64,000 nucleotides of DNA from Ascidia mentula (lineage: Eukaryota > Chordata > Ascidiacea > Phlebobranchia > Ascidiidae): NCBI GenBank assembly GCA_947561715.1, contig OX387205.1, positions 6,577,001 to 6,641,000 of the forward strand, read 5' to 3'. A program made the position numbers and the translations under genes. Of the stretch, positions 1,949 to 61,500 are shown one piece after another. How positions within the stretch are numbered: position 1 is the stretch's first letter; every line of letters starts with the position of its first letter. The notes beneath the pieces were generated by a model that was not told the DNA's origin, did not search any database, and saw only the letters and a program-made list of their open reading frames with translations.

Positions 1949-4900
1949 TCAGCTGTTCTTGTTTCTTGCAGTTTTGGATCTTATTCTGTTAAAAAGAGAT
2001 TTAGTTAATTAGATATATTTTCATATACATGATTTGGCCTACCTTGCCTCCTTTCGTGAAATTATATATTCAAACGTCAAGACGTTTGGTATGAATGTGG
2101 AGTCGCGAATCATAAAGAATTTGCATATGCTATGTTCAACAATTAGTGAGAAGTAACGAGAAAAAAGTACCTGCAAAACAACTTGACATATTGTGTGAAC
2201 AAGACCTAAATTTAAAGACTTAGACAAAGATCTGAGTTTGTGGCAAGGAAAATCCACCCTTTTCACATACTACCATGCATATTTTTAAACTCGTGGTTGA
2301 CAAGAAAACAAAACCAGCAGCTGTTTGCAAATAATATTTGTGTTTTGTAAATGGCTCTCAATGCTTTTGCAACAAAAAATTTGTTTGCTGCACTCTATGC
2401 CCAACTAAAATTACATTTAAATGACTGCACAGTGTCTGTTATTGGTCGTTTCAGTTCTATTGTCTTCACAGATACTAACCCTTACCTAAATCCAGGGCTC
2501 GGCCAATATTGACCTTGTTTTTTGGGACAGTGGCTCCCAACCAAGGTACCTTTTTTAAGTTTGAAATGTGCCATGAGCTTTTTTCTGCGTGTTGTCTTTG
2601 GAATTTTTTATAACATGTATTTTAAAGCTGACACTTTCAGGTTTCTAGATGGGTGCTGTAAAACGTTTTTTTATCTTCTGTCAGTTGAGGTTGGGAACCA
2701 CTGTTTTAAGACATACAAACTCAAGGAGTAAATATTAACTGATAATTATGTACCTGGGTCAAAGAAAACCAGATATTGCCCAATATAAATCCTATTAAAA
2801 TTCCAGCCAGTACTTGTGACCAAGTATGATAAACCAAGTATATGCGACTATAACATACAAGTCCAGTGACAACGAGACCAAGTACAGTAATTCCATGCTT
2901 CCAAACAACACCAAACCATGTTGTATACCCATGCAATCTAAAAATATATTTTAAAATCAATTGCATAGCCATTTAAGCAGTTTGTATAACTTTGCAGTGT
3001 TACAAGGTATAGTGTGAATAGGAAATATTTTCACAAAAAGTTCCATATCAAATACATAAACCTACAAAAACAATTCTTCTGCACCACAACCAAACAGTTG
3101 TATTAGGCATTAATAATAGGGTTAATTATGCAAATTCATAAGCTGCTTAATAGGCACATCTGGTTAAAAAAAGGTGTAAAACTCTTCTTAAAAGTGAAAA
3201 TTACACTATTGCTTTGAATAAAACAAAGCCACATATAATAAACTCACAACCCTGATTTTTTTAAAATCAACTTAGCACAAATAAATTACACTTATAGTTA
3301 CACTTATTAGACAAGTAAACACTGTCAGTTGTTCTCCATATGAGCAGATCCAGCCACAATTTTGTAGCAGATTGGAATTACTGTTATGTGTCATGTGAGA
3401 TTTGTTGCAATTCCTTAATCAAAGTCAGTGAGATAACTATAAGTTGGGTTCAGGATAGGGATGTGCCAAGGCGAACCCGAATCTATTCGCCGAATAGCAC
3501 AGATTTAATATTCGTGCGAATAACACACAAGATTTGTATGCTTGTGTACAATTATTGGAGCATAATATGGTTGTGTAATACACTAACTGAGGTTTAGTGC
3601 TTTTTTGAATAATCAACAATGGAAGCAGAGCGCTACGAGAACAAGTGTAGACATTTTTGCCATCGGTTAATCACCACGAATGTACAAATGTAACAATAAC
3701 AGCGTTTCTTTTGCAGCGAAATCCCTTTGGTCTAACATAGTTTCATAGTTATGGTCCAACAAAGTAAGTCTATTCGTGGCACGGGTTTGCATAACTAAAA
3801 CGCCTTTGACGACAAAAGAACTGAATCTCTGAGTTGTTTAACATTATATTTGATCAATCTGAGGGCACAATTACGTCATGTTAAGTCAAAGTATCGTTCT
3901 TCCAAAAAACGGTATAGCGGCCATTGTTTACCTGTGCGATAGTAGACTTGTTGGTTTCTGTAAGTTTATTATACTTTGCAGAAATCAACTGTATGTAATT
4001 ATTTTGTCGTATGACAGTAAAACAATCGTTCGTCAAGGAACATAGGCTACATGCGCGCATGATCTATTGCTCATGTCTTACTTACACACGAATATATTCG
4101 GGTTCGTGCGAATAATGTTTCCTATTTATTCGGGTTAGCACGAACCCGAATCTTTGTCCATCTGGCACATCCCTAGTTGAGGGTTGGGGTTTCATATGGA
4201 ATTCGTGTCAAAGTCGCTGAAAATACCACTCTGATGCTATTATTATTGCTATAAATTATTTCTGGTCTATTTTCATACTACAGTAGTCATAACTACCTCA
4301 GTATAATTTAACTCACCGAATATAGCAGAAAAGAACTCCGTATGTCACGAAAAAGCCCATAAACTGTGAATGTGCGGATGGCCACCCATATTTACCACTG
4401 TATTGTTCATGTGTAGCTTTTGGCCGAAGTTCACATATATACAGTTTTAAAAATGTGTTAACTATTTCATTCAACAGCAATCCAGCTAGATAGAATACCT
4501 GCAAGAAGACAAGTGTTATTTCTCTGAGGCATAGGCGTATCCAGGAATTTTTAAAGGGGGGGTCCAATTTTTTTTGGGAATTCCCCGATTATTAGGTGTA
4601 AACTAAGGTTAATTGTGGTCGAGAATCGAATGCCAGTGTTCCCGCCAATCGTCACATAAACGGTGGCTTAAAATAAACCGGACCCCCCCTGGATACGCCC
4701 ATGCTCTGAAGTAATTAATATGCAAGTCATTACAACAGAACATGAGGCATGCCAACATCGAACTGTACAACTGTACAACTGTACAAGACACTTACTGTGT
4801 GAATTTCTCTTCTAAAATATATGTGAGTAGCAAATGCAACCAAAGTAAATATAGGTGTTAAACTAGCCAAAGCAAGGATGAATCCGAAAATATCACCTGT

Positions 4901-6160
4901 AATGCAAAAAATTTTTATGGCACCAAACTCCAGCACTGCAAAATATATAATAACATAGTTTTTTCTCCCGCAAAAGAAATCAAAAATAGCACCTACTGAT
5001 AAATTAAAATTTGGATCGAAATATATTATTATTCAAATCTTTCAGATTTATTATTCTGAAATGATCACATCTATTTCTGACAGCAAAAGTTTTGTACGCA
5101 GATACCAGAAAAACCTACGCTGGAGACCAAATGGGCGATAGGTAATAAATGATGGATTGATTGGCGCTTGATGACAGGGCATATTTTCTCTTATAGCGTA
5201 AGTCAGTGTTTCCCAACCGGTGGTACGTGTGCCACTAGTAGTACGCAACCGCATTCCAGGTGGTACATGAGCACCTTTCCGTAATTTGCGGGTATAGTTT
5301 GAATTAAAAATATCGTAACTGATTTTTTTTCGATAGTTTATCCCCTAGGTTACTTTGTAACACTCAATTAGGTGGTACGCGTCGAAATTGTTTTACCTCC
5401 AAGTGGTACGCAACCACAAAAAGGTTGGGAATCACTGGCCCAAATGATTCAGTCCAATCTTTGTATAATTTATGCTACTTCGTAAAGGGCTTTTCTCGCA
5501 CGCTGAACTAAAAGTTATTGATTCTGATGTCACAATGAATTTTATGTGAGTCACCAATTAACGCTCAATCATCGCTATTCAGAAATTAGGATTTTCGGTG
5601 GTATGGTTTACTTGTTTTAACTAGACATTGGTATTAAAATATTAGAAATCAGACGAAATTGGTGTCATTCCGCCAACCTTACCCATCGCATTAATTGACA
5701 GGCAACAAATAAATTCGTTATGTTTTTTGTCTGTTCTGTTGGGAGTTGTTAAATGACCAAGGTATTTTGGGGGGGGTGCAGAAAAAAAGGTTTGAGAAAC
5801 ACTGGTTTAGACATTCGCATGCCAAAAAAAGTTTAACAACAACTTGTGTGTGCAGCTGCCATGCTCTGCAAACTGGTGCTAGTGCGTGACTATTGCAATT
5901 TTATGGTTAGAAGGATTAAAGTAGAAATACTTGAATATTTTTTTGGATAAACCAAGTGAATTATCCAGCAAAGACTTTTCTTAGTGTAAGGATAAGAGCC
6001 TTTGTGCTTTGAACTACTTTTTTAAGTGACAAATTTTATTTAGAAAATCACAACTCTGCGGTTAAGACATATTCTTTTTCTAACCTTCGAGATACTGAAC
6101 GTGCGTAAACGACAAAGGTTTCCATTTTTCTGCATTTCCAAAAACTTCCTTCTCCTCCAT
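1949..6160 (-). CDS. DOLPP1: Dolichyldiphosphatase 1, complete six-exon gene
   Basis: An ER membrane phosphatase that removes a phosphate from dolichyl pyrophosphate so the lipid can be reused in N-glycosylation. Coding exons in gene order: 6160-6085, 4896-4796, 4498-4317, 2937-2754, 2170-2043 and 1985-1949. All joins are GT-AG and phase-compatible, giving 235 codons; the human protein has 238. The lipid-phosphatase signature is present: K77-X6-R84-P85, P99-S-A-H102 and S150-R151-X5-H157. The C-terminal block FFMIRDSTFIPNV matches the family closely. Hydrophobic stretches fit a four-pass membrane protein. The ATG at 6160 is chosen because it opens a 25-codon lead into the conserved LSFTHVQY block, as in human DOLPP1. 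Introns hold hAT-like MITEs. A dispersed repeat begins about 12 bases upstream of the ATG. Identification is firm; transcript ends are not seen. Confidence 0.95.
3456..4175. mobile_element. hAT-like non-autonomous element (720 bp) in a DOLPP1 intron
   Basis: The ends are inverted copies of TAGGGATGTGCC. They are flanked by imperfect 8-bp direct repeats (GTTCAGGA at 3448-3455, GTTGAGGG at 4176-4183, six of eight matching), as expected for hAT insertions. Subterminal sequence rich in CGAACCCGAAT/ATTCGGGTTCG is also inverted. No transposase reading frame is present. Confidence 0.75.
4529..4704. mobile_element. Short MITE with GGCGTATCCAGG inverted ends
   Basis: A 176-bp element whose ends are inverted copies of GCAT(A/G)GGCGTATCCAGG. 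The flanks are similar (TCTGAG and TCTGAA), an imperfect short target duplication. It is non-coding and lies just upstream of exon 3 in the DOLPP1 intron. Superfamily not assigned. Confidence 0.65.
5204..5437. mobile_element. hAT-like MITE (CAGTG ends)
   Basis: Starts CAGTGTTTCCCAACC and ends with the inverted partner GGTTGGGAATCACTG, a common hAT terminal motif. The flanking octamers GCGTAAGT and GCCCAAAT match at five of eight positions. Repeated GTGGTACG words occur inside; no coding capacity. It lies in DOLPP1 intron 1. Confidence 0.65.
5765..5804. mobile_element. Right end of a truncated hAT-like element
   Basis: GGTTTGAGAAACACTG is the inverted form of the common hAT terminus CAGTGTTTCTCAAACC, preceded by a G-rich tract. 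I found no matching left end upstream in the intron, so this is probably a truncated copy. Confidence 0.4.
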
Positions 6161-48673: not shown

Positions 48674-48904
48674 GTAGAATTTTGTCATGTGGCTTGCTTT
48701 GTTGAATTGGTATATATTGTCCCTTATCCGATCAACATCAAAAGGTTTTCTACTGAAGGCTACTCAGAATTACTGTGTATTCTTTTACCAAGTTAGTTTG
48801 TTACGTCATCACAACCACGTCATTCTGTCGTGGCCAACAACTGTTGCCATTCCCAACGCCATCGCAACAGAAAGCAGCCACACTATGAAAGAAAAGTCAC
48901 TTTA

Positions 48905-49051
48905 GGTGCAAAAAAAAACTTTTAGGCTACTAATTCATGCAAAAAAGCCAAAGATTTGAGGTTCCCTAAATTGCACTGATGATGAACGCAGCCGTGTTCG
49001 AAACGTTTGCATATAATGTACAGCAGCATAATAGCTTCGGCTTTTTTGTTT
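48905..49051 (+). mobile_element. Short hammerhead-bearing insertion with 12-bp target duplication
   Basis: A 147-bp insertion between two copies of AAAGTCACTTTA (48893-48904 and 49052-49063). The related repeat at 54605 has one uninterrupted site (54837-54850), which proves insertion. Inside are an inverted pair CAAAAAAGCC-AAAG/CTTC-GGCTTTTTTG and a hammerhead-like core. No coding capacity; A-rich left end and T-rich right end. Confidence 0.85.
48972..49011 (+). ncRNA. Hammerhead-ribozyme-like motif in the 147-bp insertion
   Basis: TTGCA, CTGATGA, an extra T, then a six-pair stem II GAACGC-AGCC-GTGTTC, GAAA, CGTT and TGCA. The two TGCA blocks pair as stem I. Stem III would be ACGU without a loop, so only a dimer could complete it. 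The core residues are intact. Confidence 0.6.
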
Positions 49052-49562
49052 AAAGTCACTTTACTTTATTATAATATGACTCGCCTTAAAGACAGGTTAC
49101 ACAGCATTAGAAACTGGTTTGGCAGTGACACGCAAACGTAACAACTAAAGGCACGTACTAATACGATGATAACAACGTCGTGTGAAAAATTGAAACCATG
49201 CTTCAGGGCATTTACGGTCCTTTTGTTTTGAAATTCAAAGTCACAACAGATTTTCCGAAGAAATAATAACATGTTCGCTACACTACTTTTTCGTTGTAGT
49301 CCAAAAGTTTAATAGTTAAAGTTATCAATGATTATGTAAACCATAAGAATCATCTTATTCAAATATTACTAATTTCGTAGTCCTAACAACGAGATTTTGC
49401 TGTTGCTAGAGCATGTACAAAAATATCGTTACTTGGAATCTCCCCATTGATGTAGCTGGGCAACAAAATAACAATTGCGTCTGTGCAATATGAAATCACT
49501 TTAAATACGCAGACAGGCACCGACTGTTCACAATACCTGAGGACAATAAACAGCTTTGCCAA

Positions 49563-52500: not shown

Positions 52501-55500
52501 AGGAATAGGAAATTACCCTATGAATTTTTCGTTTCGCCTCCCACTTGATTTGTTTTAATTCTTTGAGGAACCCTAGTTATTCCGACATACGAAACGTCAG
52601 AAAAATAAATGTTTTCTTTGCCGAAAAATCGAACAGACTATTGTAAAAATAGAGAAATTGTATCATTGAGCTAGCTTCGTGATTAATTTTTGGAACATGT
52701 TTCAGAGTTACGTTAGGACTATGCGACGGGAAAGTTTTCGCGAAGCCGTACAGGTTTACAAAACAACCCGCGTTTAAAGTTGGCATGACTCGATGCAATT
52801 AAATTTTCACATATTTCAAAAGAGGAGCAGCCAAAGGTTTGCATTGATGGCACGCTTCAGTTCTTACCCGCTTTCCGCTATCATTGAAAAAGCTTTTGAA
52901 GCCCATGGTTTCGACTTCGCGTCACCAATGCGTCTGACGCCACAATGATGCAGGTAAAGATTGGCTGAAAATGCATTGTGGTTTAGATACAAGTTATTTA
53001 CTAAAACGCGTGTAGTGCAACCCTAAATCCTTTTGTGGGAAAACTTTTACGTTTAGGCAAAGCAGGAATTGTCGAAGAATGTAAGTACTTTGGCTGTTTT
53101 GTGCGTTTTTACTGCGGGGAATAAGTCTTGATCGCATGGAAACTGACAGTAGACGGACACTAAAGCTTATATATTATGTTTCTTTGTTAGTGCGTACGAC
53201 TAAGTTAGGAAAATTTCCTACATTTTTAATATCTTTGGTAGAACTTTCTAAAGTGACCTGGAGAATTAGGAGAACACGATTATAATTTGATTTTGAGTCT
53301 TTAGTTTCATATGCTGAGACTATTTTCTTCAACTTTACGTAAAATTTGGTTATTGGGCTTGGTACTTGCTTTGCCTAAACAAAAAAATTTCCAACAAAAA
53401 AGATTTTACCGCAGCGTTACACGCGTTTAATCTAAACCAATGCATTTTCTGCCAATCTTTTTCTGCAGCATTGTTAACGAGAGGTCGGAACCATGAATAG
53501 TTCAGAAACTAATTCGACCAATTTTTAATAGCAACAGAACGTCAAAAAATGCTCAAAAGTACAGTTATTCCTCAAGCTCGGTCAGGTTTTTTAAGTCCTA
53601 TGACATGATTGCTCCTCATAGATCTGCCCCTGCCTGTGGGCATATCGCACAACTTTGTGGCTGTGAGACGGCAACCCAATAGCATGTAACAATGCATCAA
53701 CTTCGTTCCGCTACTATAGCCATTTTTCGCGTTTACATTCTTTAAGGTTTGACAATGATGCTCAGCCTAGAGCACGTGCTGGTGCATGTAGAAGTTTTTT
53801 TTTTCTTTAAACACAAACTAACTAATTTTTTGCTGCTTTTAAGCTAAAACAATATCCAGCAAATAATAATAATGAAAATAATTGGACTTCGCTGTTTGCG
53901 ACGCAATAAAATTAAAGTATTTATGTTTTACATTGCAATGGACATCAGAAAAAGTATTAACATATTTGGCAAAAGAAAAATATGTGTTGTGTAAATTTCC
54001 TATATGAGTAAACCTCCAAGAAAGCAAATATATCTGTGCTTTTCAAACATATCTTTTACAAAAAGTATTTTTTGCAGTGCTACTGCCGATGCAGACATTT
54101 CAAGTAAGTTGAAAATACATGTTTCTGCAGTTTGGTGTGAAATACACTTGCTCAAGATATCAATACAAAATTTGTGAAGTATTTTTAAATATTAAGCACT
54201 ATCTTGTTTAAAAAAGTCATGATTTTTGTACTTTATAATAATGTTAATAACATGGTATTTCCCTGCCAGAGTATGAATTTGTATGTGGACTTACTAGTTA
54301 TTATAATTACTCAGAGCATGACTTGCCAGTTGCATACCCCCAAAAGTCCATGGATATGTTTGAGACCAATGAGTCGAACGAAAACTTACCAACCACTTCA
54401 ATATACTATCACATGCACAAGGGGAGCCAACATGGTTTGAAAGATCCACTCAAAGAAGAAGATATTGAACCAGGTAAGGTTGCAAAATGATTATCAAAAC
54501 ATGTACAATCACTTTTGCAGTGCTTGTGTTTTTGTCAAACTGGCGTAGATTACAACATGCAGGGCGTCGTGTAGAATTTTAATGTTTTTTTTTTCATATC
54601 AAGTGTAGAATTTTAAGTGTTTTTGCCTAGTTGAATTGGTATATTTATTGTTCTTATCTGCTCCATATCAGAATGTTTTCTACTGAATGCTGTTCAAAGT
54701 AACTGTGCAGTCTTTTGCCAAGTTATTTTATTACGTCATCACAATAGGTCAGCCTGTCGTGAGCACTGTTCCATTCCCATCGCCAAACATCTTGACATCG
54801 ACATTGTAACAAAACGCAGGCACATTACATAACAAAGAAAGGTCACTTTACTTACTATAATATGACTTGCCTTAAAGCCAGGTTACACAGTGTTAGAAAC
54901 TGGTTTTGCAGTGACACGCAAACGTAACAAGGCACGCACTAAAACAATGACAACAGCGTCCTAACGTGTCAGGGGAAAAGTTGAAAACATGCTTCAGGGC
55001 ATTTGCGGCTCTTTTGTTCTAGAGTCCAAGTCACAATTATATATGTAAAAAAAATTAAATATTAACATGTTCGCTACAGTCGATTTTTTATTGCTTGTCG
55101 AACATCTTGAGAAAAATTATTGTGCGTGTCGAATAGCAAAAATTTTAGAATACACGTTGAAATAACAACAAAAAACCTTGCATGTTGTGGGCTGGTATGT
55201 CTCTTTTAAGGTCCGATTGAAAGAAAAATGGTACTTGTTTCGTAACAATGCCTTGTGTTCGGTAACAATGCTCCATGTTTTTTCGTTAATGCCACGCGCT
55301 TTTTCGTTACGTAAATACTAACTGGTTTTTGTATGGATTTTGTCTAAATAATTATTTCGGTTCCGCTTATTTAGCCATCTAAACAGACAAAATTATTTTG
55401 GGTGGGGATCCCAGGGTAGCAAACGATAATGGTGTCGGGGTACGCCCCCGCTGAGTGAACGTTGGGTACGACTGCGTCTCGGGCCTCGCACCCAAAGGAT

Positions 55501-58500
55501 CCGACTAAGTCTCGATTGAAAATCGGCCATGCAGGCAACTTGCCTTCTCTATCTCAAGGTTACTGTTGGAGTTAAATAACTCCTTCACACAAGTCTGTGC
55601 GTCTTCTAGGTAGTTTAATTCCCGACTAAACACATACATCCACCAAGTTTCAAACCAGTCCAAAGTTGTTCATAAATCCGTTTATTGTCGATAATCCAGT
55701 AATATATACTACAACACAGTACAGAAGTTTCTTCAAAACATGGACAGTACTATTTAAGGCAGAACCAAAACAGCCCAGACCCTTGCACAGCAACAGTTAA
55801 AACACACTGGTTGGCAGCCGCTAGTCGCTCTGCTTTTTGGTCCGCGGTTGGCCACACGTATTGATTGATACCTAAAATGGAGTTGTTGCGCAACTTTGAA
55901 TGCAACTTGAAGTTGGTTACCGATTTGGTCGATTACGTCAGTTTATGGCTTGATTACCTCCCTAAATAGTGCCCTAATAGGTTTTATGTTTAGGTTGACT
56001 TTGTTTTCCGATTAACTTAAAGTAATTATGTTTATTTTGACTTTATTTATCATTTGCGATGTACGCGTGATTTATATGCGTTGAACGCTTGGTTACAATG
56101 ACAATTTCAAACCACTTTTGCCACCAGCATCTACGGCAAAAATTTACAACTACCGGTACATTTCAATGGGAAAATTGTTGGCGTCCAATCTTCGAAAAAA
56201 CTACTAAGATCGATGTGAATGTTGCAACGAAATTTAACGAAAAATGAATGCTTCGCAGTTGCACCAAGGGAATGCTTAGATAACCTGACTCAAACCAAAG
56301 AATAGCATAAACACAAAAATTATTTATATTGCTTAACAGTGTAATTAATGTGGACCAATGCCACACTCTTATTGTGTACACCAAAAGTTTTTAAATAAAA
56401 AATAAAAAGCATTGTACATTGATTACTCTTATAGATACAAACTGTGTGTCTGCTTTATACATCATTTTATAGTACAAAAATTATTATCACAAAACAATAG
56501 AACAATAGATAGATTTAATGAGTATTGCTCATTTTTAAGACATAATAGCATATATTTTTTACTAGTTAATTGCTTTAATTGCCACATGACTGCTAATTTT
56601 ATATATATATCAATTACTCATTACATATTACTCATTAAGAAGGTATGCAACACAGTTAATGTGTGTAACACACTACTCCTGAATTTGTGACTGTTCAGTA
56701 TTTAAAACTGGGGTCATAGAAATTTGACTTGAAGTACAGAAAGCAACAAAGCAATAAATAGCTTTTCTATTTTGAATAAACCTTTTCTACTTTACTCAAT
56801 CAACAGACTACACAAAAACAATTAAATCAAGGCTAATAATTTTTTTTTAAAAATAAATATTTTATAACTGTACAGCTGTGATTTTTGTACAATGAAAAAA
56901 GAGAGCAATATTTGGGTAATTGCACATACACCAAGTTACAAATTTGTTATATTTCTTTAGGTTGTGGATCACCATCAGACAAAACCCTTGGAAAATGTGC
57001 TTTGTTTTGGGGAACACAGTGTGGTTGTGAAACTGGGGATGAGTTTGTGGTTGGCCTTCGCCGTGTTGGAAGTCGTGGTATTGTAGCAGTTTACATGCCG
57101 CAATTTTTAATACAAATTGATTAAGCTATTTTGTAGAGTAAGAATGTTAAAAAAATCTGTACAGATTGGTGTTGTTTGCCAATATCTTTATTAATTCATA
57201 AATCCAAAAAAGTGGTAGGTGATCACAAAGTTTTAGCTCATTAAGCCAAACTTTGTTATATGAGTGGATTTTAAATTTGCAAACATTATTTGTATTTCTA
57301 AAACACACACACACACACACACAACGTACAGGTTCATAAGATCATACATTTTGTCTTTTATTTTTTTTAAATTGGTATTACAATGGTCTTTAATTTTAAT
57401 CCAACTACAAATATTGTCCATAAATCATTGTCATAATATATTTTGTTAATGAGTCCTAAATCAAAATAGCAGTACAGCAAAACGTTTATGCACGGATGGT
57501 GGAGTACATGATTTATGTACATTTAAGCAATAGAAAAAGCTGAAAATTAAAAGTACATCAAAAAACAATAGGACAAAATATCCTTTTATCAAAATTCAAT
57601 GCTCAATATACTTTTGGCTTTTTAAAACAGTTCGGTCATTATTGTACAATTAAAAATTTGAAGCAATTCTTTGTGAATAAACCTTTATGTCTTTTGTTGT
57701 TATGTATGTAAAATTAGTGTACATTTTCCATTTGTGCATTTTTCTTTCAAAATAATTTTTATGTTACAGTTCTGATGGCAATTCTATTTTGGGCATTTTT
57801 TTGGTCTATTACCGCACTTGGAGGGGGCTTTGCACTTCCAGGAGGAAATCTGTTTGGTAAGTTACATCACTGCAAATGTACATTGTACACACATTTCCTT
57901 TTATATCTAACCAAGCCATTGTATCACCAGTCTTAGATATGCACCAAACTTTTATCCTATGCTTCCCAATTATTGCAACAAACAGCACAGTTGTACATGA
58001 TTTTAAATAGATGGGGTAAGGAGAGTGGGTCATTTTTTGGCTGCTATTCTCATTCTTTTTAACCTGATCAGTTCTTGGTCAGCAAAGTCGTCTGAAAGTC
58101 ACACCAGCCGCACTGATGAGACCTTTTATGTCGAAACAGTGGCCATCTGTCTGCAGCTTACACAATTCATATTATTGGCTCCACTTTACTTATCTGACCA
58201 GTTCTTCCTGCTATGAATGTGGCTTAATTCTGTCAATTTGATGGCATTGAACCAAGTCATCCCATAATGCACAGGGACTAACAACACTAACCCTTTCTGT
58301 TTCTCCACTTTATTCCATTAATTAATTGCTGATTGTTGATGTTACACAAACAGTGTGCACAGTGCATTAACTGTTTTGTGGGTTAGTTAACAACAAGTAA
58401 CAGAATACTAAAATGGTTTGCAGTAAGCAGTAAGTACAAAAAGCTGCTGGGTAACAGTCGTTGAATGTGCGCATATGTAGAAATTGGGATGGGTGAGGTA

Positions 58501-61500
58501 CAATTTCAGAGAACCAATCCAAAGTGACTGGAAGGTTATGGTAGGTCACAAAAAATAGCCAGAGGTGCCTTTTTTTCACATCTCAACCTTTTTTGGTTCA
58601 TGGCCCCCGTCGTTAAAAATATTTCCATATACACAATTCCTATTCATTCTCAGTTTTAACAATGCAACTTGCAGTGACATTACTGCTGCATGATCGCAGC
58701 GAAACCAATTAAATATTTTTTTTAATGACAAAACTTTTTTTGATGATATAAAACATTAAAGTTTTAAACTAGAATCATTTTTTCCGACTTTTGGTTACAA
58801 ACATATTTTTATTCTGCTGTAACAGTTTAGTTCTGAATCTGACTGAGGTTTTGGGTTCTTCATTTAAAAAAAATATAATGGTTGGTTGTATATATGCTAA
58901 CTATGAAAGAAGATGTAAGATATTGTGTTTTTTGTATACTAGATTATGATGTATAACTTTGTGAGCTGCATCCAGATGGCCACTGTTTTGACCTATAAGG
59001 TCTCATCAGTGCAGCTTGGTGTAACTATTGACAATCTTGTGGGCGAAATGGCCAGACAAAGCTTTTCACTTTGTAGTGACTATACAGTCACTGTCATCTG
59101 TTGGGCACAAAACTAGGTGCAACCATTTATAAAAACAAGCTGAAAACACTATAGCTAAGCAAAAGCTATACCCATGGCCATGGTGCTATGCATCATATTA
59201 TTGGCTTCCTGCTTATTTATATGATGTATACTCTTCATAAGGTCATAGTTTAGCAAATATTAAATTTTTTTAGGTGAAAAACTTATAAACAACTGCTTGC
59301 CTGTTACTTGTTTAATGTATAATAAGTTGCTTGTTGTTGTAGTGTTTTAGCCATAAAAAGTTGGTTATGTTATGTAACTAACATGACAATTTCACTTGCT
59401 GCATGATAATGCACTATGTTATGCTAAAGTATTGTTGCTCTTTTTTGTGTGTGTCAAATATTATTTGATAGTATTTTACCAATAACATAGCCTGGCAATG
59501 TATAGATTAATCTCATAAAATCGTTATATGTAGCTTATTGAACTACAATAAGCTGCAGACAGATGGCCACTGTTTCGACCTAAAAGGTCTCATCAGTGCA
59601 GCTGGTGTGACTTTCAGACGACTTTGCTGACCAAACAGCCAAGCAAAGACTTCCACAATCATAAGATAAGCAAAGTGGAGCCAATAATATGAATTGTGTG
59701 AGCTGTTCAATTCATATTATTGGCTCCTCTTTGCTTACAATATTTTCAAGTTCATGAACTGTAAAAACTAAACACATTTTGCTTCAGGTGTTTTAATGGT
59801 GTTCCTCTTTGGAATTGTTACTGAAACATTGATTGTTTTAATCCCTTTGCCATTTGGCCTTCCAAACCTTCCACCTTTGCTTGGTAAGAGGTTTAAACTA
59901 CTTCTTCAGTAGAATATCCAGAAATTTGAAAAGTTGTATGCAGATTGCTTTGCTGTAACATAATTCGATAATACTAATTACCTAAAAAAGAATTCTTGGG
60001 TTTTTCACTTATGTTGCCAAAAGTGTAAATATAATACAGAAGCAGCATAGCTTTTGTGAAATTTCTTTCAAAAATCTAGGCTTAAGAAGACTGACTCGAG
60101 GAATTATAATTTTGAAAATGGTTGCACAAAATTTCAAAAAAGCTATGCTGCTTCTGTCTTAAAAAAAGCTCAGCAAAAATAGTTATCATTTACTACTTTT
60201 ACTGAGCTTTGAAACCAAAACTATTTGGTTTACAGCTTCCTTGTTTATGGGGATTATACTCCGCAATGTTCCTGTTATTAATGTTGCAAAGGAAATTAAT
60301 CCAGACTGGTCATTTACTCTGCGACAAATGGCTCTTGGTGTTATCTTGGGTGAAGCTGGAGTTGAAGTTGACAAAGAGGTATATATGTGTTTGGTATGAA
60401 ATTTTTGATTTGCTACAACGAAATTTTAAATTTCCCTGCATAATTGTGAGAAAGATTGAACTTTTTGTAAATGAATAGATGATGAGAAAACTAAAGTCTG
60501 TTGTTCCACGTCTGGCCTTTTCCCCTTGTTTGTCAGAAGCAATTGCATATGGAATATTTTCACATTTGATACTTGATTTGCCTTGGCTATGGTCCTTTAT
60601 GCTTGGGTAGGTAGCAACAAATATGAACAAACTATACTGTAACAGGTAACTTTATGGAAAACATCCTTTCTTTGATTAACACAAGTAAATAAGGATTATT
60701 GCAGTTAATTTGGAGCATAATTGCAAGTGTGTACAATGTTTCAACAATTTTTTTTTCTTTGACAAATATTTGTCCATGAAAGCTAATTCAAAGGAAATTA
60801 AATTTTTTGGATGCAAATATAGTTTTGTGTAAAGCAGCCAAAATGGGGAGTGGTTCTGGGTAATTAAATTCCCAAGTATAAACCATTTTTGGGATAAATT
60901 TGTAGTGGAAAAAACGAAATAGTTTAGTGGAAAAAATGAAATAAAAAAATAAATAAGTACTGTGTTATGTAATCATTATTAAAAAGGTTGGTTTAATTGG
61001 TGCAACTTTTTTTTTATTCCTTTACCGCTATTATTGGTTTAGTTTTTAATTTTTTAGAGTGACAGGGTAAAGATATAGTTTAAAAAATGTAAATGATGTG
61101 TACATATATCTGATATGATGGGAAATCCTAAAATGTCAATGTGAAGAAAGTTTATTAAACTGAAACATACTGATGACTATAAATAGGGGCCACATATATA
61201 ACTAATTTGCATACATAAAAATCATTGTTTTCTTTGGAGTTCTTGTATTAGGAAGTTGATCCAATGGGTTGTCCAGGATAAGGACAAAGTTTGAAATACA
61301 GTTTAAATTTCCCTTGGTATGTGTCGTTTGTTAAATTTCAGTTGCTTACTTTGATTTGAACATTGATCGTTTAATTGAAAAGGGGATACTATCATGGATG
61401 GCATAATCATAAAAAGTATATCAGTTGGTATAAAATAAATAATGTATTTTGTGTGAATTTGCCAAGGGTGGCTGGGATACAATCGAGTAAAAAAACTATG

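What the first reader, a model, noticed from the sequence alone, without database searches (positions are those of the whole stretch)
48893..49063. 147-bp hammerhead-bearing insertion with 12-bp duplication and an empty site in the same window
AAAGTCACTTTA flanks the insertion, and the paralogous repeat at 54605 has a single uninterrupted site at 54837-54850. That makes the mobile nature of the hammerhead unit directly visible. A 12-bp duplication is unlike typical DNA transposons and fits target-primed reverse transcription. The unit is too small to encode anything, so it depends on another element's enzyme.
Basis: seen in the sequence. Interest (0 to 1): 0.8.

Follow-up and report, generated by a model that had tools for sequence, protein, structure and literature searches.

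The report
Tiny two-armed Penelope retroelement insertion
A 147-base insert in an animal genome is a short, two-armed scrap of a Penelope-like jumping gene copied into an AT-rich site; it is a known kind of insertion, but it shows unusually clearly how such elements enter DNA.

Summary
The insertion is real: AAAGTCACTTTA (48893-48904, 49052-49063) flanks 147 bp. Fourteen other places align across this site without the insert, and two of five fetched carry those 12 bp exactly once.

It is not a 147-bp mobile unit: its left half matches only itself in the genome. It consists of two inverted arms. The right arm (48968-49054) carries a hammerhead-like motif and belongs to a dispersed family (at least 411 candidate places). 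The left arm (48903-48953) is the same family's 3' end, inverted and 28 bp longer. Penelope-like elements (PLEs) in this genome have the same two ends, an optional tail, head-to-head arms and 11-15 bp duplications. The ends fall after codon 13, and one base after codon 22, of a frame that looks like the start of the PLE gene.

In 13 of 15 two-armed family copies one arm ends at the tail site and the other near the tail-less site; none has two tails. Inner ends differ in all 15. This fits PLE protein priming on both target strands at two internal RNA sites, as shown in vitro for an anole PLE (PMC11167929).

Best reading: a dead-on-arrival PLE integration product, a kind already described in rotifers. 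The hammerhead is probably passenger sequence.

The parts
48893..48904 (.). Left copy of the 12-bp target duplication AAAGTCACTTTA; its last two bases (TA) also fit the element's tail end
   Evidence: one copy at the empty sites L067 and L070
48903..48953 (-). Left arm: family reference 131-178 in inverted orientation, with the 28-bp tail at its outer end
   Evidence: 76% identity, E 4e-5
48954..48967 (.). 14-bp filler between the arms, not matched to the family
48968..49054 (+). Right arm: family reference 64-150, ending at the tail-less site GTTTAAA
   Evidence: 92% identity, E 4e-31; dispersed family
48976..49004 (+). Hammerhead-like core CTGATGA-T-stem II-GAAAC, with one extra T after CTGATGA
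   Evidence: no Rfam hammerhead match
49016..49054 (+). Thirteen codons that look like the start of the PLE gene (MYSSIIASAFLF plus AAA, the AAA shared with the duplication); predicted hammerhead cut after 49020 (by inspection)
49052..49063 (.). Right copy of the 12-bp target duplication; its first three bases (AAA) also fit the element's end
54838..54850 (.). Uninterrupted site in the paralogous repeat, AAAGGTCACTTTA

Best explanation
The insert is a 5'-truncated, head-to-head integration product of a Penelope-like element (PLE) terminal repeat. Inferred course: PLE protein cut both target strands about 12 bp apart; each strand primed cDNA synthesis inside PLE-type RNA, one at the tail site and one at the tail-less site 28 nt upstream; both cDNAs stopped early (about 48 and 87 nt) and were joined with 14 nt of filler; gap filling made the duplication. 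Shown here: the insertion, duplication and empty sites; two inverted arms with the two PLE end points; PLE genes in this genome with the same ends. Inferred: the enzyme, two-strand priming and the joining step. The hammerhead lies in the copied terminal repeat; nothing here shows that it acts.
For: Two inverted arms ending at reference 178 and 150. L060 PLE: GIY-YIG ORF with the same motif 148 bp after its stop. L086 PLE: RT ORF (E 9e-11), tail-less inverted arm left, tail right, duplication GAAGTTATTAGC(TTT). L060 pair: duplication GAAAGTAACGC. Young PLE ends L099, L103, L107: flanking repeats of 12, 13, 13 bp, in 3 of 20 fetched; L090 has 9; 16 have none of 9 or more in the 451 bp held, many reaching the edge. 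One tail and one tail-less end in 13 of 15 two-armed family-A copies and 6 of 6 simple family-B pairs. Inner ends unequal in 15 of 15. Two-strand extension and two internal start sites in vitro (PMC11167929).
Against: 23 of 34 family copies have no flanking repeat scoring 7 or more, so the duplication is often lost, decayed or absent. Eight of the 15 two-armed copies score 7 or less. L005 and L080 have no arm at the tail site. The family is about 17-20% diverged from the PLE terminal repeats found, and no gene-bearing element with family A's own end was identified. No full-length gene of the L060/L086 clade was found. L060 and L061 are long palindromes, which fold-back would explain at least as well. 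Frangieh et al. saw no strand difference in start site, so the one-tail rule is not predicted by their data alone.
Confidence: 0.88

Rival explanations
1. Fold-back: the inverted arms arose by self-priming of one cDNA or antisense RNA, as proposed for rotifer Penelope elements (PMC3846280), and the hairpin was then inserted by PLE protein.
For: Head-to-head repeats with palindromic junctions are described in A. vaga; L060 and L061 here are near-complete palindromes of about 95% identity.
Against: In 15 of 15 small two-armed copies the inner ends of the arms differ by 27-108 nt, and the outer ends are two different discrete sites rather than one.
Confidence: 0.1
2. Animal retrozyme: a self-cleaving non-autonomous unit that moves through circular RNA, mobilised by PLEs.
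For: Hammerhead-like motif; metazoan retrozymes have duplications longer than 4 bp and PLEs are candidate helpers (PMC7229834 passages).
Against: Arms are inverted, not tandem monomers; left half unique; ends match PLE start sites rather than a cut-to-cut monomer; motif not recognised by Rfam.
Confidence: 0.03
3. Miniature DNA transposon with terminal inverted repeats.
For: Inverted arms and a target duplication.
Against: The two outer ends are not equivalent and inner junctions differ between copies; exact duplication length varies from 10 to 16 bp; single-armed 5'-truncated copies are common.
Confidence: 0.01
4. Old internal segment of repeat C, lost from the other copies.
For: None beyond the position inside repeat C.
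Against: Fourteen other places lack it, with one copy of the site, and the family is dispersed, at least 31 kb from any other listed repeat C.
Confidence: 0.01

Closest known systems
Endonuclease-containing Penelope elements with inverted pseudo-LTRs, e.g. Pen2a_Av of Adineta vaga (PMC3846280; passages and Discussion read)
   Same: Inverted head-to-head terminal repeats, optional 31-bp tail on one of them, target duplications of 8-10 bp, pLTR holding the first 12 codons (22 with tail), sequences captured between solo pLTRs.
   Different: Here the insert holds only two short arms, the tail is 28 bp, the duplication is 12 bp, and a hammerhead-like motif is present (the word hammerhead does not occur in that paper's main text).
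Poseidon PLE of Anolis carolinensis (PAc; PMC11167929; parts 1-2 of 4 read)
   Same: Hammerhead at the pLTR-ORF junction, two internal start sites defining the tail, cutting and extension of both strands.
   Different: In PAc the ORF starts at stem II; here the frame from that ATG closes (by inspection) and the open frame starts about 40 nt further on. Enzyme activity was not tested here.
Metazoan non-LTR retrozymes (PMC7229834; abstract and passages)
   Same: Small, hammerhead-bearing, non-coding inserts with target duplications.
   Different: Retrozymes carry canonical type I ribozymes in tandem monomers of 170-400 nt; here inverted arms and a degenerate motif.
Twin priming of LINE-1 (recalled)
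   Same: Two target strands prime on element RNA, giving an inverted segment and a target duplication.
   Different: In L1 the second site is arbitrary and there is a poly(A) end; here both ends lie at fixed internal sites and no poly(A) was seen.

Membership tests
Penelope-like element (EN+), as a truncated copy | Terminal sequence shared with an element encoding RT and GIY-YIG | tested here: met
   Family reference matches L060, L061, L086, L088 at 77-83% beside PLE ORFs; GIY-YIG in L060, RT in L086
Penelope-like element (EN+), as a truncated copy | Optional 30-40 bp tail on one end | tested here: met
   28-bp tail on the left arm only; ends bimodal, 25 and 21 of 48
Penelope-like element (EN+), as a truncated copy | Short target duplication | tested here: met
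   12 bp with empty sites
Penelope-like element (EN+), as a truncated copy | Inverted terminal repeats | tested here: met
   Target and 14 other family copies
Penelope-like element (EN+), as a truncated copy | Own RT and endonuclease gene | tested here: not met
   147 bp; non-autonomous fragment
Penelope-like element (EN+), as a truncated copy | Working hammerhead ribozyme | not testable with these tools
   Motif present; Rfam negative; no cleavage assay
Metazoan non-LTR retrozyme | Canonical type I hammerhead | tested here: not met
Metazoan non-LTR retrozyme | Tandem monomers of 170-400 nt | tested here: not met
   Inverted arms in 147 bp
Metazoan non-LTR retrozyme | Circular RNA | not testable with these tools
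   No RNA data
TIR DNA transposon / MITE | Equivalent terminal inverted repeats and constant internal structure | tested here: not met
   Unequal ends, different junctions

The most novel reading that the evidence does not exclude
Genome-wide footprints show that PLE insertions are normally primed on both target strands, one cDNA starting at the tail site and the other at the tail-less site, so that a two-armed insert carries exactly one tail (19 of 21 here). The anole in vitro reaction would then be the natural pathway, and the tail a mark of which strand was primed where. Both start sites lie at the presumed first 22 codons, downstream of a hammerhead whose predicted cut would separate the start codon from the gene.
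Probability: 0.35. Interest if true: 0.62.

Novelty: new member of a known kind. Interest (0 to 1): 0.42.

Why it matters
How Penelope-like elements integrate is poorly known; the anole paper presents itself as the first purified active PLE. Inserts with two short, independently truncated arms, two discrete end points and an empty site give in vivo evidence that can be counted. It also warns that a small hammerhead-bearing insert need not be a retrozyme: it can be a dead-on-arrival piece of a PLE end.

Tried and rejected
Rfam gave no hammerhead at the target or at L009. An SNORD123 match (E 0.2) is far below its gathering score and was set aside. GTTCGAAAC resembles a Pol III B box (recalled), but the PLE homology explains it. 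A first stem II string was misplaced and redone; covariation within the family does not exceed shuffles. Flanks at tail-less ends resemble the tail slightly more than random 14-mers (5.3 against 3.9 of 14; 25 ends), but composition and decayed tails confound this, so no claim is made. The family-B reference holds a duplicated CTT from a script slip, which shifts its coordinates by 3. L013 (11-bp flanking repeat) was dropped as a presumed duplicate of the L002 group before the count. L005's 11-bp repeat lies outside its called arms and was not counted. L012's inverted arm lies 230 bp away and was not counted as two-armed.

Full report
THE OBSERVATION. AAAGTCACTTTA stands at 48893-48904 and 49052-49063 with 147 bp between. 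The 54.6-kb paralogue has one uninterrupted site, AAAGGTCACTTTA, at 54838-54850. The window lies in a 195.8-Mb genome of 79 contigs. A search with the 54.6-kb copy scored 40 of 58 candidates and listed 54 matches; 14 places besides the query align in one piece across the site (several are mutual duplicates), and the 48.6-kb copy is the only one seen split by the insert. About ten C1 copies have a deletion just before the site and no room for the insert; one-sided matches say nothing. Of five places fetched, two (L067, L070) have exactly one AAAGTCACTTTA and three have one diverged copy. So the 147 bp is a derived insertion and the repeat a target duplication. Bases TA (left) and AAA (right) could belong to element or target.

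NOT A UNIT. Searched alone, the left half (48893-48980) matches only itself, even at E 10. The right part matches a dispersed family: 411 and 415 first-look candidates, 40 scored in each search. In 30 loci examined, homology starts at many different 5' points and mostly stops at fixed 3' points, as in reverse-transcribed copies. Of 52 other family places and 41 repeat-C places listed by the searches, the closest two are 31 kb apart.

ANATOMY. Against a 178-nt family reference the insert resolves into two inverted arms: reference 131-178 reversed on the left (48903-48953) and 64-150 forward on the right (48968-49054), with 14 bp of filler between. Both 3' ends point outward. The left arm is longer at its outer end by a 28-bp segment, the tail.

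THE FAMILY IS A PENELOPE-LIKE END. GIY-YIG domains are abundant here (121 matches; 382 candidates, 150 scored). L060 holds an ORF with GIY-YIG (Pfam E 6e-8; no RT model match in that 319-aa piece), followed 148 bp after its stop by the same hammerhead-like motif. L086, 96% identical to that protein, has a 456-aa ORF with RT (E 9e-11), the motif at 4072, an inverted tail-less arm on the left and a tail on the right, flanked by GAAGTTATTAGC(TTT). L060 forms a head-to-head pair flanked by GAAAGTAACGC; its duplicate locus L061 shows the same. The PLE end with its tail occurs 102 times with up to 3 mismatches, against 0 for the reversed control. Of 20 exact matches fetched (14 independent after merging groups of five and three with shared flanks), L099 and L107 (two-armed) and L103 (one arm) have flanking repeats of 12, 13 and 13 bp, L090 has 9, and the other 16 have none of 9 or more within the 451 bp held. 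Family A itself is about 17-20% diverged from these PLE ends, and I found no gene-bearing element with family A's own end.

CODING END. The tail-less site falls exactly after codon 13, and the tail site one base after codon 22, of an open frame whose ATG sits at the predicted hammerhead cut: MYSSILALAFLFK|LINSKFFAP in family A, MYNSILALAFIFK|VINSKYFAP in L086; differences by codon position are 2, 2 and 7. In another PLE clade (L087) the frame from the same place continues for 200 codons; that locus also holds an 804-aa ORF with RT. In Adineta vaga the pLTR includes 12 codons, 22 with the tail (PMC3846280). None of the 20 exact PLE ends was seen, by eye, to continue into a PLE gene, so for this clade the start codon is inferred.

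END STATISTICS. From 45 loci 11 were dropped as presumed duplicates, leaving 34; one search dropped L028 too. Of 48 outer ends, 25 lie at reference 141-159, 21 at 174-178 and 2 elsewhere. Fifteen copies are two-armed: 13 have one tail and one tail-less end, 2 (L005, L080) have no end at the tail site, none has two tails. Six of six simple two-armed family-B copies also have one of each; L045's left end was called by BLAST 15 nt beyond the tail-less site, and its duplicate locus L046 shows that the extra belongs to the target repeat. L033, L034 and L043 were complex and L038 and L042 not two-armed, and these five were left out. Under equal odds 13 of 15 has probability 0.004, 19 of 21 has 0.0001, and 18 of 21 (L045 not counted as fitting) has 0.0007; loci were taken best-first, not at random. 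Inner ends of the arms differ by 27-108 nt in 15 of 15. Flanking repeats: score 7 or more in 11 of 34 against 9.4% of mismatched pairs, 8 or more in 8 against 2.9%, 10 or more in 4 against 0.27%, 12 in 3 against 0.09%. Four of the six family-B pairs have exact repeats of 10, 12, 14 and 16 bp; L041 and L045 have none.

MECHANISM. Frangieh et al. 2024 (PMC11167929, parts 1-2 of 4 read) report that an anole PLE protein cuts and extends both DNA strands and starts cDNA at two adjacent internal RNA sites that define the genomic tail; they saw no strand difference in start site. The insert has the form expected if each strand used one site and both cDNAs stopped early. Fold-back self-priming (PMC3846280) predicts matched inner ends and is not favoured for these small inserts, though L060 and L061 are long palindromes of about 95% identity. 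Enzyme, order of events and joining are inferred.

THE HAMMERHEAD. The core motif is present, with an extra T after CTGATGA that also occurs in PLE copies L060, L086 and L087. Stem II pairs in 94% of cells on 20 rows, at most 67% when slid, without covariation beyond shuffles. Rfam does not recognise it. The base after the predicted cut is C here and T in the family majority, which by inspection costs a stem I pair. Minimal hammerheads in PLEs are known (PMC7761336 and PMC7229834 passages). In the anole system hammerhead mutants did not affect insertion. I read it as passenger sequence here.

NOVELTY. Inverted pLTRs, an optional tail on one of them, short duplications, and sequences captured between solo pLTRs are in print (PMC3846280). 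Eight paper searches were run; four papers were opened, and I saw no count of the one-tail rule in the parts read. The library lacks most subscription papers, so this is no claim of absence. I file the insert as a new member of a known kind.

Noticed in passing
window 58075-58195 (+), 58964-59175 (-), 59547-59702 (-): A second hammerhead-bearing family (GCACTGATGAGACCTTTTAGGTCGAAACAG). The best 40 of 1441 first-look candidates in the genome are 98-100% identical to the query, so it looks young. Rfam hammerhead scores are below gathering. The 58075 copy has imperfect flanks TGATCAGTTCTT / TGACCAGTTCTT.
   Followed up: partly
L063 (G000:C72:14330000-14337000): A GIY-YIG ORF (E 7e-8) on the minus strand with a family-B-type hammerhead motif at 5671 on the same strand, about 1.9 kb upstream of the ORF: a possible autonomous partner of that family.
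   Followed up: partly
L087 (G000:C72:14535500-14541900): Head-to-head pair of PLE genes with ORFs of 672 and 804 aa, 99.4% identical over 2350 bp of the inverted arms, hammerhead-like motifs on both sides.
   Followed up: partly
L107 (C73:11768320-11768770) and L099 (C52:22847800-22848250): Even smaller two-armed PLE inserts of about 100-150 bp, near-identical to the PLE end, with 13- and 12-bp flanking repeats: recent relatives of the target.
   Followed up: yes
L089, L095, L096, L100, L101: Five of 20 exact PLE ends share the same 150 bp downstream at 96-99% identity, as if a larger repeat carries the PLE end.
   Followed up: no
L002, L003, L004, L006, L013, L017: Loci with a second, inverted, 74-80% identical copy of the motif about 1.0-1.6 kb away: a longer element whose inside was not examined.
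   Followed up: no
window 59664-59737: Hairpin of two 30-nt arms (97% complementary, 11 nt apart), made of the family-B optional tail in both orientations.
   Followed up: no
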